Source: Streptomyces sp. CB01635 (GTDB lineage: Bacteria; Actinomycetota; Actinomycetes; Streptomycetales; Streptomycetaceae). Taken from it: 64,000 bases of DNA. Below, one piece after another: positions 1 through 12,158 of the stretch; within the stretch, counting starts at the first letter, position 1; each line of letters begins with the position of its first letter. The position numbers and the translations under genes were made by a program. Where the stretch lies: NCBI RefSeq assembly GCF_002803065.1, contig NZ_NNBL01000014.1, forward strand, positions 129,650 through 193,649. The letters are read 5' to 3'. A model generated the notes under the pieces. The model was given only the letters and a program-made list of their open reading frames with translations, was not told the DNA's origin and ran no database searches.

Positions 1-1
1 C

Positions 2-1687
2 TTCTTCGCGCCCGAGCCGATCTCCCGGCGCCTGCTCACCGGCGTCCGCGACGCCCCCGTGCCCCCGGAGCTCAGCGCGGCACTCAGTGACCCGATCCGG
101 CTCAGCCGCGCCATCCGCGAGATCAACCGGTACGCGCTGGCGCGCATCAACCACGAGACCAACACCATCCAGCTGCACCGACTGGTCCAGCGCGTCCTCA
201 TCAACCAGATGACGGAGCCGCTGAAGTCGCAGATGCGCGCCGGCGCCCACCGGCTGCTCGCCAAGGACGACGCCGGCGAGCCCGACAAGTCCCACCGGTG
301 GCAGCAGTACGGCGACCTGCTGCCGCACGTCCTCAACAGCAGGGCCGTCGAGTCGACGGACCCGTGGGTGAGGAATCTCGTCCTGAACGAGATCCTGTAC
401 ATGTACTACTGGGGCGACCACCAGGGCTCCCTCGACCTGGCCAGGGAGACGTACACCACCTGGCGCGAGGCCGACGGGGACACCGCCGAGCACGTACTCA
501 ACGCGGCCCGGATCTACACGAACTCCCTGCGCATCCTGGGCCGCTACTCGGAGGCGTACGAACTCGACCAGCGGACGCTGGCCGGGATGACCCAGGTCCT
601 CGGCCCCGAGCACGAGTCGACGATCGACATCACCAGCATGCTCGCCTGGGACCTGCGGCTGCGCGGCGACTTCCAGGCGGCGCTCGACCTCGACAAGCAC
701 GCCTTCGAGACCTGCGAGCGCCTCTTCGGGCCCAACGACCCCTCCACCCTCCTCAGCGCCCACCGGCACGCGCTGAACCTGCGGTTCATCGGGCACTTCC
801 GGGCGGCGCTCGCGCTCGACCGCATGACGCACGGCCGCAAGGTCGCCGAGCTCGGCGAGAACGCGGTGTCGACGCTGTCGACCCTGGCGGCGGTGACGTT
901 CGACCTCCAGGAGGGCGGCGAGTACCTGGCGGCCCGCGACCAGGCGCGCGACGTCGAGGAGCGCTTCCGCAACACCGTCGGCGACAGCCACCCGAACACG
1001 ATCTCCGCGATGCGGGTCCTGTCGGTGGCCGAACGACGCGCCGGACAGCACGCCCTGGCCCTGGAGCTCTCGGGCCGGGCCCTCGTCATGTTCCGCACCC
1101 GCTACGGCGACCTGTACCCGCAGACGGTGAACGCGCTGGCCTCGCACGCCATCGACGTACGGCACAGCGGCGACCTCGCCCGGGCGCTCGAACTCGGGCA
1201 GGAGGGGTACGAGGGGTACGAGGCGCTGCTCGGCGCGCGGCATCCGCACTCCGTGGCGGCACACGTCAACCACGCGATCTGTCTGCGCCTCGCCGGGCGG
1301 ACCGAGGAGGCCCGCGCGAGCGACGTGGACTCGCAGGAGAAGCTGATCGAGCTGATCGGCGAGGACCACCCCAACACCCTTTCCTGCACCGCGAATCTCG
1401 CCGCCGACCTGTTCGAACTCGGCGAGATGCAGGCTTCGGCGGACATCGCCACGAGGGGGCTCGACCTGTGCCGCACCCACCTCGGCGAGGACCACCCCAT
1501 CACCCTCGCCACAGCCCTCAACCTCTCGCTCGGGCTGCGCCAGCTGCGGCGTGACGACGAGGCGGACGAGCTGTACGCCGACACGGCCGAGCGCTACGGA
1601 CGCACCCTCGGCGAGGACCACCCGGCGACGGTGGCGGCCGCGGACGGCAGGCCCGCGAACTGCGACATCGACCCGCTGCTGATGTGA
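2..1687 (+). CDS. fxsT: FxSxx-COOH system TPR protein (FxsT-like), 5'-truncated by window edge
   Basis: The reading frame is open from base 2, so the gene starts outside the window and about 561 C-terminal residues are visible. The protein is a chain of TPR/Kinesin-light-chain-like repeats of about 42 residues, each carrying a G-x-x-HP-x-T signature (LGPEHEST, GDSHPNT, GEDHPNT, GEDHPIT, GEDHPAT). The N-terminal visible part (AREINRYAL..., LHRLVQRVL) resembles the segment after the NB-ARC-like ATPase of FxsT proteins. By family knowledge, FxsT accompanies a radical SAM enzyme (FxsB) and a small precursor (FxsA) in actinobacterial cyclophane RiPP loci; those genes would lie upstream. It is convergent with the HExxH protein and shares a hairpin terminator at 1706-1736. 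A generic NB-ARC/TPR regulator is the alternative. Confidence 0.75.
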   Translation, partial: FFAPEPISRRLLTGVRDAPVPPELSAALSDPIRLSRAIREINRYALARINHETNTIQLHRLVQRVLINQMTEPLKSQMRAGAHRLLAKDDAGEPDKSHRWQQYGDLLPHVLNSRAVESTDPWVRNLVLNEILYMYYWGDHQGSLDLARETYTTWREADGDTAEHVLNAARIYTNSLRILGRYSEAYELDQRTLAGMTQVLGPEHESTIDITSMLAWDLRLRGDFQAALDLDKHAFETCERLFGPNDPSTLLSAHRHALNLRFIGHFRAALALDRMTHGRKVAELGENAVSTLSTLAAVTFDLQEGGEYLAARDQARDVEERFRNTVGDSHPNTISAMRVLSVAERRAGQHALALELSGRALVMFRTRYGDLYPQTVNALASHAIDVRHSGDLARALELGQEGYEGYEALLGARHPHSVAAHVNHAICLRLAGRTEEARASDVDSQEKLIELIGEDHPNTLSCTANLAADLFELGEMQASADIATRGLDLCRTHLGEDHPITLATALNLSLGLRQLRRDDEADELYADTAERYGRTLGEDHPATVAAADGRPANCDIDPLLM

Positions 1688-1705: not shown

Positions 1706-1736
1706 GACCCCGCCCGGGACCCTTCCGGGCGGGGTC
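1706..1736. terminator. Bidirectional hairpin terminator between convergent genes
   Basis: A 12-bp perfect stem, GACCCCGCCCGG (1706-1717) paired with 1725-1736, with a 7-nt loop. It sits between two convergent stop codons and its right arm touches the stop of the HExxH gene, so it can serve both genes. Confidence 0.7.
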
Positions 1737-3633
1737 AGCGCTGTGGCACGTCCGTCGCGGCCTGCGCGGTGAGTCCGGGGATCCGCGCGGTCCAGCGGGC
1801 CAGTACCAGCGGGTCGGGCGTCTGCGCGCCGCGGGCCCGCGCGTCCAGGGCGAGCGCCCGCACCAGCTCGGGCCGGTGCAGCAGGGCCGTGGCCGGGCCG
1901 TCCTCGCCGGAAGCCTCCAGGGCGAGGCCGAGGCCGACCCAGGCCGGGCGGGTCCCGGGGGCACCGGTCAGGACGGCGCGGTAGCGGTCGACGGCCCGTG
2001 CCGTGTTCGCCGACCCGCCGCGCAGGAGGCACATGTCCGCCTCCAGGAGGTCCGGGGACCGGTCCACCCCGGAGAACCGGGCCCGCGTGTCCGGGGTGAA
2101 CGTTCCTGCGTCGGCGAGGTGCAACCGCCGCATCTCACAACGGAGTTCGGGCAGGCGCGGCGGCGGGTCCGTGCGCAGCCGGGACAGCGGGGCGGTCGCC
2201 TCCTCGCCGGGGCCGCCGCCGAGGCGGTGGTCGGTGAGCAGACGGGTGGCTGCCGGGTCGGGCGCGAGGTTGTGGCTGCACCACGTGGCGCGCAGATCGG
2301 CGAGTTCGGCTTCCGCCGGGGCGAGGGCCTCGGCCGGTACGTCCTCGTCGGCCCACGGAGCGGCCTGGCGCGCCATCCCGTCGACGAAGCGGCGGCCCCA
2401 CGGGGTGAGCCCGGGCTGGGCGGACAGCGTGCGCAGGGCGATGGCCACCGCCTCGCGCCACACGGCGAACTCGAAGTGCGCGAGGGCGGCCCGGGGTCCG
2501 GTCAGGGCGTGCCGTTCGGTGCGCCAGAAGCCGGCGACGCCGGTGAACGCGTACGTGCCGTGCAGCAGGCCCCACGGCGGGCGCGGGTCGCTGCGCCAGG
2601 GCGCGTAGAGCAGCGTGTCCTGCCGTGGTCCGCGCGCCGCCCTGTCGACGAGCTGGATCTGGTGGCTCAGGGCGTTGAGCACGGAGTGCCGTGACTCGTG
2701 GACGAGGGTGACGGCGAAGTCGACGGCGTCGCGCGGCAGGGAGACCAGCGCGCTCCCGAACGCCTCGGCGTACGAGGCGCTGGAGGCGCGGAAGCGGGGT
2801 GCGCCCGGCAGGGGCACGAGCGAGCTCAGGACGAGCGGCACCGTGCGGGCCGCGTCCGGGTGGCGGGCCCCGAGAAGGCGTGCCGCGTCGTGCAGATGCC
2901 GCTGCCAGGTGTCCGACTCCGCGTCGGTGAGCGGGGCCGGGGGCGGCCAGGGGGACCGGAAGTCGCGGTAGGGGTCGGCGTCGTCCAGGAGGACGCCGGG
3001 GCCCGGCTCGCGCGGGGTCCAGCTCAGCAGGCGCGCGGGGTGCCAGCCGGGGGCCGGCAGGTGCGGGGCGGCGGGCAGTTCGAGGGCGTGCGGGCCGAGC
3101 GTGACGCGGGCCGTGCCGTGCCCGTCCGTCTCGAGAGTGGCGACGTCGTGGCAGCGGGAGGCGTCATCCAGTACGGCGTGCCCCACCGTCGGCAGGATCA
3201 CCCTGCCCGCGCGGGCCGGTACGCGGACGCGCGCGGGAAGTCCCGCCCGCAGCGCGGCCGCCGCGGCGAGCGCGTGCGCGTAGCCCGCCTCCCGCCACAA
3301 GGGGGGCTCCCCGGGCCGGGGCCCGGCGCCGCCGGCCCGCAGCCGCCCGAGCAGGCGGACCGCCCAGACCCCGACCGGCGGGTGCCCGAGCACGCTCGCC
3401 ACCGCCTGCGGATCGTGGGCCTCCGCACCGGCCAGCAGCTCGAAGGCGTGCGCCAGCGGGGGCAGCGGTCCTGCGCTTTCTTCCGTCTCGCGTTCCGCGG
3501 CTACCAGGGCCCGCAGCATGAGCATGCGGCGGCTGCGCTCCGCCGCCGCGATGCGGGTCGCGGTGGGTGCGGTGATGCGGCCGGTGGCGATGGCCTCCAG
3601 GTCGGCGACCGGCACGTGGTGCCGCGTCAGCAC
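1735..3633 (-). CDS. HExxH-motif putative peptide-modifying enzyme (aKG-HExxH beta-hydroxylase-like)
   Basis: A 632-aa protein with a central HESRH motif near residue 311 (context TLVHESRHSVLNAL), the hallmark of the HEXXH putative peptide-modification family now often called aKG-HExxH-type peptide beta-hydroxylases. The N-terminal third is an Ala/Leu-rich helical region (LAHAFELLAGAEAHDP). The C-terminal part resembles a TPR-like helical tail with a PGTRPAWVGLGLALEASG segment. The GTG start (3631-3633) overlaps the stop of the small upstream ORF by seven bases, which implies translational coupling. Inferred role: modification (for example beta-hydroxylation) of that upstream peptide. The reaction is family knowledge, not visible here. 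The adjacent convergent FxsT-like gene supports a RiPP setting. No signal peptide is seen, so it is probably cytoplasmic. Confidence 0.75.
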   Translation of the reverse strand: MLTRHHVPVADLEAIATGRITAPTATRIAAAERSRRMLMLRALVAAERETEESAGPLPPLAHAFELLAGAEAHDPQAVASVLGHPPVGVWAVRLLGRLRAGGAGPRPGEPPLWREAGYAHALAAAAALRAGLPARVRVPARAGRVILPTVGHAVLDDASRCHDVATLETDGHGTARVTLGPHALELPAAPHLPAPGWHPARLLSWTPREPGPGVLLDDADPYRDFRSPWPPPAPLTDAESDTWQRHLHDAARLLGARHPDAARTVPLVLSSLVPLPGAPRFRASSASYAEAFGSALVSLPRDAVDFAVTLVHESRHSVLNALSHQIQLVDRAARGPRQDTLLYAPWRSDPRPPWGLLHGTYAFTGVAGFWRTERHALTGPRAALAHFEFAVWREAVAIALRTLSAQPGLTPWGRRFVDGMARQAAPWADEDVPAEALAPAEAELADLRATWCSHNLAPDPAATRLLTDHRLGGGPGEEATAPLSRLRTDPPPRLPELRCEMRRLHLADAGTFTPDTRARFSGVDRSPDLLEADMCLLRGGSANTARAVDRYRAVLTGAPGTRPAWVGLGLALEASGEDGPATALLHRPELVRALALDARARGAQTPDPLVLARWTARIPGLTAQAATDVPQR

Positions 3634-3935
3634 GGCAGGGCAGGACAGTCGGGCTCGTCAGACAGGTCGCACGGGGATGCCGGCTCTGGCGGCTCGGGCG
3701 GCCCGTGTTCGTGCCGAGGCTCCTGGGGAGCCGTGCCGACGTGCTGTCGCGGGCTGAAGTACGGATTCCCGTCCCCGCCGCCCACGACCTGCCCGACAGC
3801 GTCCTCCGTCAAATGCTCGAGCAGCGCGTTCTGCGCCGCCGCCACCAACGGGTCCCTCAGTGCCATGGCCTCCTGAAGGCCCCAACGGCTGAGATCGACA
3901 AGTCCGGTCTCGATGTCAGTCGTAGAAGTCCTCAC
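3627..3935 (-). CDS. Small leader-like peptide, candidate RiPP precursor for the HExxH enzyme
   Basis: A 102-aa ORF. I chose the GTG at 3933-3935 because a strong AGGGGGAAG ribosome-binding site lies about 6 nt upstream. Residues 10-45 (TGLVDLSRWGLQEA..., followed by DPLVAAAQNALLEHL) have the LVDLS-x-x-x-L helical pattern that I associate with FxsA/HExxH-linked leader peptides. The C-terminal half is rich in Gly, Pro, Glu and His, and ends with three cysteines (89, 97 and the terminal residue 102). It does not end in FxSxx. The stop overlaps the start of the HExxH enzyme, so the two are co-translated. Its function as a precursor is an inference; a regulatory adaptor is the alternative. Confidence 0.6.
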   Translation of the reverse strand: MRTSTTDIETGLVDLSRWGLQEAMALRDPLVAAAQNALLEHLTEDAVGQVVGGGDGNPYFSPRQHVGTAPQEPRHEHGPPEPPEPASPCDLSDEPDCPALPC

Positions 3936-4338
3936 GTCAAACTTCCCCCTGTCGGCTCCCGCTCGCGGCCCCGCGGCGCAGACCCACCTCCTTCCCATAG
4001 TGGCCCGTGGTCAGCCGCGCCGAAAGGGGCTCCGGTGGCCATCAAGGCTTGAATTGTTCGATTCATGTCCGGGGGAGACGGCATCCGGTGCCGCGGCCAG
4101 CCGTTGGCCGGGGGCTCAACTGGCGTGTCCTGTGGGGAAATTGGTGCGACGCGACGGTACGGGTCCCTGCCTCGGCCACTTACACCGCTTCTGTCGTACA
4201 GAGGCACATTCCTGACGCACCGACATGAGGCCTCTCCGCGCCCCGTTGTCACGCAGCCGCGCCGACCGTCCGTCATCGGCACCCGTGCGGACCCTCCCGG
4301 CTCGCGCGCCCCGCGCGGTGCCCGCAGGGTGCGGAGAT
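3936..4338. other. Intergenic region with divergent promoters, no gene seen
   Basis: About 400 bp between the divergent precursor candidate and the mannosyltransferase. It has locally lower GC (around 4040-4070 and 4180-4205) than the flanking genes. Open frames here lack ribosome-binding sites and read as shadows. It probably holds two divergent promoters, but no clear -10/-35 pair could be assigned. Confidence 0.5.
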
Positions 4339-9864: not shown

Positions 9865-10067
9865 ACGGCCGCGTCCACGGGAGCGACACTCCAGGAAAGA
9901 TCCGGAGGCGCGATGTTCTTTCCGGCGGACGCGTGAGTGGCGGGTGTGCCACTCCAGGAGAGGTCCTGGGTGCTGAGCACACCGAAAGCCAGACCGGCGG
10001 AGAAGGCAACAGCCATCACCGAGCGAAGCATTTTCTTGCACATAGTGGGCTTCGTCCTCACTTCCAT
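9861..10067 (-). CDS. Short secreted or membrane peptide with two DLSWS motifs
   Basis: A 68-aa ORF. I chose the ATG at 10065-10067 because GGGGGAG lies about 7 nt upstream; an inner ATG at 10043 is possible. A basic N-terminus (KKMLRS) is followed by a hydrophobic segment (about residues 13-31, MLRSVMAVAFSAGLAFGVL), which looks like a signal peptide. The remaining ~35 residues contain the pentapeptide DLSWS twice, at 35-39 and 56-60, separated by an Ala/Thr/Lys linker. It overlaps the Rieske-like gene and is divergent from two LuxR-type regulators, with about 105 bp between starts. I do not recognise the family. The duplicated motif suggests a mature peptide or signalling product, which is inference. 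Confidence 0.55.
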   Translation of the reverse strand: MEVRTKPTMCKKMLRSVMAVAFSAGLAFGVLSTQDLSWSGTPATHASAGKNIAPPDLSWSVAPVDAAV

Positions 10068-10173
10068 GGCTTCTCTCCCCCGACTCACTAGACGATGGCT
10101 CATTCGGCCATCCAAACACCACAGGATCGATGCATCATGTTCCTGCACGTTCAGGACCCTGGGGGGTGGATCT

Positions 10174-11157
10174 ATGGCCATGAATGACACATATCGGACA
10201 CATCCTCATGCCACGACTGAACTGTGCGACGAGGGCAGGCGGTTGTACGCCAATGCGCTGCGTTCCGGACGCATCGCCCGAAGCGAAGTGACGGCCGCTC
10301 CCTGCCTGATGGATTTCGCCCTTCTCCACCCAGACCCGGATGACGCCAACTGGCTCCGCCCGCTTCCTCCCGCCGCCGCCCTGGCACAGCGCCTCCACCC
10401 CATCGAACGGGAAATCCAGGAGCGAAGAAGCCTGGCGGTCGAACTGACCGAATACTTCGAGCCATTCATGGCCATCAGCGCGCAGGATCGGCCCACGACG
10501 CACGCCGTCACCGTGCTCGAAGGAATCAACAGGATCAATTCGGCCATCGAACTCGCCATCGCAGAGTGCCAGTCGGAGATCCTCACGGTCCAGCCCGGCG
10601 GCGGCCGCAGCGAGCATTCCCTGACGGAGGCGCTCGAACGGGGCCAGGCGGTCATCGCGCGCGGCATCACGATGCGCACGCTCTATCAGCACACGGCCCG
10701 GCACAGCCAGGGAACTCTCGTGTACGCCGAGCACATGGCCAAGGGGAACGTAGAGATACGCACTCTTGAGGAACTCATAGAGCGGCTGATGGTCTTCGAC
10801 CGGACCGTCGCGTTCATACCGGTCCCCGGAGACCACCCGGTCGCCCTGGAACTCCGGCATCCGGGCCTCGTCGAATACCTGGCCAAGGTCTTCGAGCAAC
10901 TGTGGCGCCGTGGGGTCCCCCTCCTGGAGGAGACCCCCTACGCACCCCCGACCGACGGCATCACCGGAGTCCAGCGGTCGATCGCCAAGCTGCTCATCGA
11001 AGGCCACGTGGACGAGGCGATCGCCCGCCGCCTCGGCATGAACGTCCGCACCTGCCGCGCCCACATCGCCAAGCTCGCCGCCGCGCTCGGCAGCGGAAGC
11101 CGCGCGCAACTCGGCTTTCTGATAGCGCAGTCGGGGATCCTCGACCAGGATCACTGA
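10174..11157 (+). CDS. LuxR-type HTH regulator with TrmB/PLD-like sensor domain (paralogue 1)
   Basis: A 327-aa protein from the ATG at 10174, preceded by GGGGGGTGG. The N-terminal region (residues 10-110) is helical (LCDEGRRLYANALRSGRI). The middle (about 115-240) has the ILTVQPGGG-to-TLYQHTARHS arrangement typical of TrmB-C/phospholipase D-like effector domains in Streptomyces regulators. The C-terminus (about 260-327) is a GerE/LuxR helix-turn-helix (EAIARRLGMNVRTCRAHIAK). It probably binds DNA and senses an unknown ligand. It is followed after 23 bp by a paralogue and is divergent from the DLSWS peptide gene, so control of that peptide is plausible. Confidence 0.75.
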   Translation: MAMNDTYRTHPHATTELCDEGRRLYANALRSGRIARSEVTAAPCLMDFALLHPDPDDANWLRPLPPAAALAQRLHPIEREIQERRSLAVELTEYFEPFMAISAQDRPTTHAVTVLEGINRINSAIELAIAECQSEILTVQPGGGRSEHSLTEALERGQAVIARGITMRTLYQHTARHSQGTLVYAEHMAKGNVEIRTLEELIERLMVFDRTVAFIPVPGDHPVALELRHPGLVEYLAKVFEQLWRRGVPLLEETPYAPPTDGITGVQRSIAKLLIEGHVDEAIARRLGMNVRTCRAHIAKLAAALGSGSRAQLGFLIAQSGILDQDH

Positions 11158-11180
11158 ATGTCGAAGGAGGAGAGCCACAC

Positions 11181-12158
11181 GTGACCGCCGAGGTCCATCC
11201 CCATGGAGTCGAGGAGCTGTGCGCGGCCGGCTCGCAGCTGTACGCGCGCGCTCTGCGAGAGGGCCGTATCCACCGCGAGGACGCCGACCCCACGCCCTGT
11301 CTTCTCGAATTCGGTCTCCTGCACACCGCCGCCGACGACATCCAGTGGCTCACACCCGTCGCGCCGGCCGTGGCCCTGCCCGGTCTCCTTCGCACCATAG
11401 AAGACGAGATCGCCCAGCAGCGCCGCCGCGAAGCCCGCCTGGCAGAGGCGTTCGCGCCGCTGATGGCCCTCGACGCACAGCGCGCCGCCGTCCCCCACGC
11501 CCCCATGCTCACGGTGCTGCTCGGCTTCCAGCGCATCAACGACGCCATCGGCGAAGCCATGGCGGAGTCCGAGGCGGAGCTGCTCACCATCCAGCCCGGC
11601 GGGAACCGCCCCCCGACACTCCTGGCCGCGGCCCTGCCGCGCGAACAGGAAATGCTGGCCCGCGGCTGCCGTATGCGCACCCTCTACCAGCACACGTCCC
11701 GTCACTCGCCCGCGGTGCTCGCCCACTACGAGCAGTTGGAGGGCGACGTCGAGGTCCGCACCCTGGACGAGGTCACCGAACGGCTCATCCTGCTCGACAG
11801 GAGCGTCGCGTTCATCCCGGCGAACCCCGACCGCACGGTCGCCCTGGAGATCCGGCACCCCGCCCTGATCGCGTACCTGGTCACGACCTTCGAACGGCTG
11901 TGGCGCCTGGCCACCCCCATGTTCCCCGACACGGGCCGGGGGACCCCGGTCACGAGCGGTGTCCCCACCCGTCAGCGGACCATAGCCGGGCTGCTGATCG
12001 AGGGTCACAACGATGCCGTCATCGCCGAACGCCTGGGCATGAACATCCGCACCGTCCGCGTCCACATCGCCAAGCTCGCCAGCACACTCGGCAGCGACAG
12101 CCGCGCCCAACTGGGCTATCTCATCGGTCAGTCCGGAATACTGGAACAGGACCGCTGA
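11181..12158 (+). CDS. LuxR-type HTH regulator with TrmB/PLD-like sensor domain (paralogue 2)
   Basis: A 325-aa protein from the GTG at 11181, with GAAGGAGGAG upstream. It is a clear paralogue of the preceding gene along its whole length: shared segments include LLTIQPGGN, MRTLYQHTSRHSP and the C-terminal HTH AERLGMNIRTVRVHIAKLA, both ending SGILxQD. The two genes are tandem, 23 bp apart and probably one transcript. The tandem copy may allow heterodimers or two ligand specificities (inference). Confidence 0.75.
   Translation: MTAEVHPHGVEELCAAGSQLYARALREGRIHREDADPTPCLLEFGLLHTAADDIQWLTPVAPAVALPGLLRTIEDEIAQQRRREARLAEAFAPLMALDAQRAAVPHAPMLTVLLGFQRINDAIGEAMAESEAELLTIQPGGNRPPTLLAAALPREQEMLARGCRMRTLYQHTSRHSPAVLAHYEQLEGDVEVRTLDEVTERLILLDRSVAFIPANPDRTVALEIRHPALIAYLVTTFERLWRLATPMFPDTGRGTPVTSGVPTRQRTIAGLLIEGHNDAVIAERLGMNIRTVRVHIAKLASTLGSDSRAQLGYLIGQSGILEQDR

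What the first reader, a model, noticed from the sequence alone, without database searches (positions are those of the whole stretch)
1735..3935. HExxH enzyme translationally coupled to a leader-like, Cys-ended peptide beside an FxsT-like gene
A 102-aa ORF with a good ribosome-binding site and an LVDLS-type helical leader overlaps by seven bases the start of a HESRH protein. Its C-terminal half is Pro/Glu/His-rich and ends with cysteines at 89, 97 and 102 instead of FxSxx. The neighbouring FxsT-like gene belongs to a known RiPP locus type. Together this suggests a hybrid or side-branch RiPP system in which the HExxH enzyme modifies a non-FxSxx core. The overlap, motif and neighbours are seen; the product is inference.
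Basis: partly seen in the sequence, partly recalled or inferred. Interest (0 to 1): 0.75.

Follow-up and report, generated by a model that had tools for sequence, protein, structure and literature searches.

The report
Peptide-oxidising pair beside a conflict system
A Streptomyces gene pair, a small peptide-like protein and an iron-oxygenase-like enzyme that probably modifies it, forms one half of a known type of bacterial self-defence ("VMAP-ternary") system; here the peptide has an unusual long tail, and in a close relative it is fused to its enzyme, which makes the poorly understood peptide arm of these systems easy to test.

Summary
In detail: a 102-aa ORF (3627-3935, minus) overlaps by 7 nt a HESRH gene (1735-3633, minus). 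The enzyme belongs to NCBI's aKG-HExxH peptide beta-hydroxylase family and folds like SjiH and ChlBH. The "FxsT-like" gene is the C-terminus of a 1426-aa vWA/NB-ARC/TPR protein preceded by an AAA+ and an EAD2-VMAP gene: a VMAP-ternary conflict system. The same tail-to-tail layout with a leader-bearing small gene before the HExxH gene recurs in about 37 of 41 related loci examined. A "peptide-processing system" in this position is published (Kaur et al. 2020). So this is a known kind of locus.

What is new is the core. Close sisters end in a short CD-motif tail; the window's clade (5 genomes) carries a conserved insertion (EPRHEHGPP...) and a longer tail overlapping the enzyme start. In a sister genome precursor and enzyme are one 714-aa ORF. 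Of the three cysteines, Cys89 is the ancestral CD motif, Cys97 is private to this strain, and Cys102 is a by-product of the overlap. No radical SAM gene is nearby, so the enzyme would act on a linear peptide. Chemistry, target and role are inferred.

The parts
3627..3935 (-). small precursor-like protein, 102 aa, GTG start
   Evidence: orthologues with the same start and 7-nt overlap in 4 genomes; core dN/dS below 1
3780..3935 (-). leader part (about residues 1-52, TDIETGLVDLSRWGLQEAMAL...)
   Evidence: profile match to precursors of other HExxH loci, probability 96.4, E 1.3e-9
3627..3779 (-). core/extension (PYFSPRQH...EPRHEHGPP...SPCDLSDEPDCPALPC); His65, His75, His77 and Cys89 kept in the clade
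   Evidence: alignments
3669..3671 (-). Cys89 codon of the CD motif shared with sister clades
3627..3633 (-). 7-nt overlap GTGCTGA (stop of the small gene, start of the enzyme gene)
   Evidence: conserved in 5 of 5 members of the clade
1735..3633 (-). aKG-HExxH-type peptide oxygenase, 632 aa
   Evidence: TIGR04267 156 bits, cut-off 40; AF2 pLDDT 90; Z 42.4 to 22ob, 28.8 to 8s5f
2686..2700 (-). HESRH motif (residues 312-316)
   Evidence: H312, E313, H316 invariant in 36 homologues
2578..2601 (-). PWRSDPRP motif (residues 345-352)
   Evidence: W346, R347, P350, R351, P352 invariant; PWRxDxRP also in ChlH and 22nu
1744..2166 (-). helical, TPR-like C-terminal part of the enzyme (about residues 490-630)
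   Evidence: model and weak TPR matches, Z about 6-7
1..1687 (+). C-terminal TPR part of the 1426-aa vWA/NB-ARC/TPR (FxsT-like) protein; the gene starts about 2.6 kb before the window
3942..3950 (-). ribosome-binding site AGGGGGAAG of the small gene
   Evidence: conserved in relatives
3996..4028 (-). conserved upstream element CCCTTTCGG-N20-TATG, promoter-like
   Evidence: found upstream of the small gene in both related clades

Best explanation
The two overlapping genes are the peptide-processing arm of a VMAP-ternary (EAD2-VMAP, AAA+, vWA/NB-ARC/TPR) conflict system. The small protein is a ribosomal precursor: its N-terminal LVDLS leader docks on the HExxH enzyme, and its C-terminal core is the substrate. 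The enzyme is an Fe(II)/2-oxoglutarate oxygenase of the aKG-HExxH family. It most likely beta-hydroxylates core residues (candidates: the conserved His65, His75 and His77 and the acidic residues around the CD motif at 89-90), acting on a linear peptide because no radical SAM partner is present. Translation of the enzyme is coupled to that of its substrate by the 7-nt overlap. The modified peptide would then act as signal, co-ligand or effector for the convergently encoded STAND protein. Shown: gene layout, conservation, family, fold and leader homology. Inferred: that the small protein is the substrate, the chemistry, the sites and the role in the conflict system.
For: Enzyme family and fold. 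Leader homology to precursors of other HExxH loci. Pairing seen in 40 of 52 loci by pattern and about 7 more by eye. Convergent VMAP/AAA+/vWA/NB-ARC/TPR operon in about 37 of 41 loci and in the closest relatives. A natural in-frame fusion of the precursor to its HExxH enzyme, with the full VMAP operon beside it. Purifying selection on the core. Published description of such a peptide arm in VMAP-ternary systems (PMC7159879). Family chemistry: Asp/His beta-hydroxylation by ChlBH and Gln hydroxylation by PflC, as described in PMC12636437.
Against: No modification has been measured. The characterised rSAM-linked enzyme needs a preinstalled cyclophane (PMC12636437), which cannot form here by a local rSAM. 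The core is not conserved between clades, so one common target residue is not evident. In the fusion homologue the core would be an internal linker rather than a free tail. A related enzyme (PflC) can also hydrolyse and oxidatively cleave peptides.
Confidence: 0.6

Rival explanations
1. The HExxH enzyme is a protease (or oxidative cleaving enzyme) that releases a C-terminal peptide from the small protein, as first proposed for these systems.
For: Kaur et al. 2020 call it a zincin-like metallopeptidase that cleaves the precursor. PflC, a family member, cleaves its peptide oxidatively and hydrolyses leaderless peptides.
Against: The closest solved relatives are SjiH and the 2-oxoglutarate oxygenase ChlBH. 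The family's PWRxDPRP motif is almost wholly invariant. In the fusion homologue a C-terminal cleavage would cut enzyme from substrate.
Confidence: 0.2
2. The small protein is not a substrate but an adaptor or regulatory subunit of the enzyme, which acts on another protein such as the vWA/NB-ARC/TPR or VMAP protein.
For: Leader region far better conserved than the core; natural fusion to the enzyme; core type differs widely between loci.
Against: Sequence type and length resemble RiPP precursors; the core is under purifying selection within the clade; short defined C-terminal tails occur in sister clades.
Confidence: 0.15
3. The long C-terminal extension is a neutral read-through product; only the short ancestral core mattered, and the extension has no function beyond translational coupling.
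For: Cys102 lies in the overlap; Cys97 is private; the tail length varies by in-frame indels.
Against: EPRHEHG is identical in all five members although synonymous changes in the core are frequent.
Confidence: 0.12

Closest known systems
VMAP-ternary conflict systems with peptide-processing module (Kaur, Burroughs, Iyer, Aravind, eLife 2020, PMC7159879)
   Same: VMAP, AAA+ and vWA genes; AP-ATPase/TPR fused to the vWA protein; HExxH zincin-fold gene plus small variable protein
   Different: Core is none of the FxSxx, RxD or four-acid types as worded in that paper; an extended, overlapping precursor and a fusion variant are not mentioned in the section read
aKG-HExxH peptide beta-hydroxylases (TIGR04267; SjiH 22ob, ChlBH 8s5f)
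   Same: Family model, HExxH and PWRxDxRP motifs, fold (Z 42.4 and 28.8)
   Different: Stand-alone, with a TPR-like C-terminal part; no radical SAM partner or domain
FxSxx-COOH cyclophane RiPP systems (FxsA/FxsB/FxsT)
   Same: FxsT-like TPR protein, LxDLS-type leader; a second VMAP system of this genome (contig C1) has an FxSxx-type precursor, rSAM and HExxH gene
   Different: No FxSxx end, no TIGR04268 match and no rSAM at the window locus
PflC/PosC RiPP pathway of Pseudomonas (PMC12636437)
   Same: HExxH enzyme guided by a leader, acting on a linear core without a radical SAM enzyme
   Different: Nitrile-hydratase-type leader, MNIO partner, transporters, no conflict system

Membership tests
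VMAP-ternary conflict system | VMAP protein | tested here: met
   VMAP-C 4.6e-37, VMAP-M0 3.4e-16, EAD2 1.2e-14
VMAP-ternary conflict system | MoxR-type AAA+ ATPase | tested here: inconclusive
   AAA_5 7.4e-8; bpMoxR only 0.02; AAA+ is clear, the MoxR subfamily was not established
VMAP-ternary conflict system | vWA protein with fused AP-ATPase and TPR | tested here: met
   SAV_2336 N-terminal domain 4.7e-94, NB-ARC 8.9e-7, FxSxx_TPR 869 bits in one protein; vWA itself read from a DSGDSM metal-site-like motif, no Pfam vWA hit
VMAP-ternary conflict system | peptide-processing pair (HExxH gene plus small variable protein) | tested here: met
aKG-HExxH peptide beta-hydroxylase | family model above cut-off | tested here: met
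   TIGR04267 156.1 bits, cut-off 40
aKG-HExxH peptide beta-hydroxylase | fold and HExxH motif | tested here: met
aKG-HExxH peptide beta-hydroxylase | Fe(II)/2-oxoglutarate-dependent peptide hydroxylation | not testable with these tools
   needs enzyme assay and mass spectrometry
FxSxx-COOH RiPP | precursor matches TIGR04268 and ends FxSxx | tested here: not met
   no NCBIfam match; genome-wide search finds another precursor on C1, not this one; ends LPC
FxSxx-COOH RiPP | radical SAM FxsB next to it | tested here: not met
   no Radical_SAM match on contig C6
[quoted passage not shown]
   sequence; sister clades also lack them
RiPP | modified, ribosomally made product | not testable with these tools
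   no product data

The most novel reading that the evidence does not exclude
In the window's clade and its fused sister the precursor has stopped being a peptide that is released. It has become a tethered domain oxidised in cis or in a tight co-translated complex, so the modified core works as a protein-bound sensor or bait module of the STAND conflict system rather than as a diffusible peptide.
Probability: 0.18. Interest if true: 0.72.

Novelty: new variant of a known kind. Interest (0 to 1): 0.45.

Why it matters
The peptide arm of VMAP-ternary systems has been described only from genome neighbourhoods, and I found no biochemistry on it in the papers searched. This locus type gives a compact two-gene test case (and a single-gene fusion) with solved homologues of the enzyme, a defined leader and a small list of candidate residues, so it becomes directly testable whether bacterial STAND conflict systems use an oxidised peptide as signal or effector.

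Tried and rejected
Small ORF against Pfam, NCBIfam and PADLOC: no match. Small ORF against its own genome: no second copy. FxsA membership: rejected. Three-cysteine core as a hallmark: rejected (Cys97 private, Cys102 in the overlap). Radical SAM partner: none on the contig. Special RNA structure in the conserved 5' region: z-score -0.65, nothing. Sigma-70-type promoter scan: nothing. PADLOC on the VMAP genes: only weak AAA hits. A pseudogene or non-coding reading was rejected by purifying selection and the conserved overlap. Literature searches for the pair itself returned only the 2020 paper as relevant. One family-level genome search failed and was repeated with 300 genomes; it gave no member outside the genus at E 1e-100.

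Full report
Observation. The 102-aa ORF at 3627-3935 (minus) and the 632-aa HESRH gene at 1735-3633 (minus) are as described, with a 7-nt overlap GTGCTGA. The small gene has an AGGGGGAAG ribosome-binding site; the enzyme's GTG has none directly upstream, which fits termination-reinitiation coupling. The neighbour at 59-1687 (plus) hits the FxSxx_TPR model NF040586.

Context outside the window. The window starts inside the neighbour. In the genome contig the neighbour is a 1426-aa protein with a SAV_2336-type N-terminal domain (vWA-like, E 4.7e-94), an NB-ARC domain (8.9e-7) and the FxSxx_TPR region (869 bits). It is preceded by an AAA+ protein and by an EAD2/VMAP-M0/VMAP-C protein (VMAP-C 4.6e-37). 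This is a VMAP-ternary conflict system. Kaur et al. (eLife 2020, PMC7159879, section 24; [quoted passage not shown]

Conservation of the arrangement. Among 41 loci taken from genomes of the same genus by similarity to the enzyme, about 37 show the same operon (vWA, NB-ARC and TPR parts) running tail-to-tail into the HExxH gene; the closest relatives, which are named Streptomyces, do so too. In 40 of 52 loci a leader-bearing small ORF was found by pattern immediately before the HExxH gene, and about seven more by eye, including a Frankia locus and one fusion. Loci were chosen by enzyme similarity, and a few represent the same organism, so these are not independent counts.

The enzyme. It exceeds the TIGR04267 cut-off (156 bits against 40). 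Its AlphaFold2 model (pLDDT 90) matches SjiH-Ni (22ob, Z 42.4, 403 residues, 2.6 A) and the HExxH domain of ChlBH, described as an alpha-ketoglutarate-dependent oxygenase (8s5f, Z 28.8), far above the next match at Z 7. H312, E313, H316 and W346, R347, P350, R351, P352 are invariant in 36 homologues, and the motifs are present in both solved relatives. Residues about 490-630 are helical and TPR-like. The name metallopeptidase used in 2020 is therefore probably outdated, although PflC of the same family can hydrolyse and oxidatively cleave peptides (PMC12636437).

The small protein. Its leader matches the profile of precursors from other HExxH loci (probability 96.4, E 1.3e-9). The enzyme tree gives the window clade (5 genomes, support 1.0), sister to the fusion genome (0.998), then a clade with short SSARCDASDD / SPARCDAPED tails (0.975), then one with SPYFAAGCDAGDL-type tails (1.0). 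The short tail with one Cys in a CD motif is in both outer clades, so it is probably ancestral. By alignment, the window clade has an insertion of about 20-25 residues (QHxGTxPxEPRHEHGPP...) between PYFSxR and CDLSDE, plus an eight-residue tail that runs into the enzyme start. Cys89 is the old CD cysteine; Cys97 is Arg in the four relatives; the Cys102 codon lies in the overlap, and the same ccGTGCTG start sequence occurs in non-overlapping sisters, so Cys102 need not be selected in the peptide. His65, His75 and His77 are kept in all five. Core dN/dS is about 0.19-0.46 for informative pairs. Leader synonymous change is lower than core synonymous change (about 0.25 against 0.72 for the window versus L086), hinting at an additional nucleotide-level constraint that I could not explain by RNA folding.

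The fusion. In genome G285 (L083/L106) the precursor reads in frame into the HExxH enzyme: 714 aa, with the ribosome-binding site and leader kept, no GTG at the usual enzyme start, and the VMAP operon beside it. This is one genome, so an assembly error is not fully excluded. If real, it argues strongly that the two proteins act together.

Paralogue. The same genome has a second VMAP system on contig C1 with an FxSxx-COOH-type precursor (35.8 bits, cut-off 28), a radical SAM protein, an HExxH gene and VMAP. The window locus has no radical SAM gene on its whole contig. So the two arms in one cell probably differ in chemistry: cyclophane plus oxidation there (inferred from the gene content), oxidation only here.

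Mechanism and verdict. Most likely the leader docks the small protein on the enzyme and core residues are oxidised, with the product serving the STAND protein as signal or effector. The locus type is known; the extended, overlapping core and the fusion are a new variant. The modification, its site and the biological role are not shown.

Noticed in passing
window 3996-4028 (-), and upstream of the small gene in L082, L084-L090, L092: Conserved upstream element CCCTTTCGG-N20-TATG, followed in the window clade by an almost identical 5' region; may be a promoter for an unusual sigma factor or an operator.
   Followed up: partly
L045, L047, L053: Loci with two divergent HExxH genes beside one vWA/NB-ARC/TPR gene; in L047 both have their own precursor (ends GGYNPQRDEA and SDFNPSAERYD).
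   Followed up: partly
L075 and L078: HExxH homologues inside open frames of more than 1800 codons, with a weak NB-ARC match and no VMAP operon; possibly a different, fused architecture.
   Followed up: no
L004 (contig C1:765001-785000): Second VMAP system of the same genome, with FxSxx-type precursor, radical SAM gene and HExxH gene.
   Followed up: partly
window 9937-12158 (+): Two tandem, similar regulator-like proteins (about 406 and 418 aa, seemingly LuxR-type helix-turn-helix C-termini by eye).
   Followed up: no
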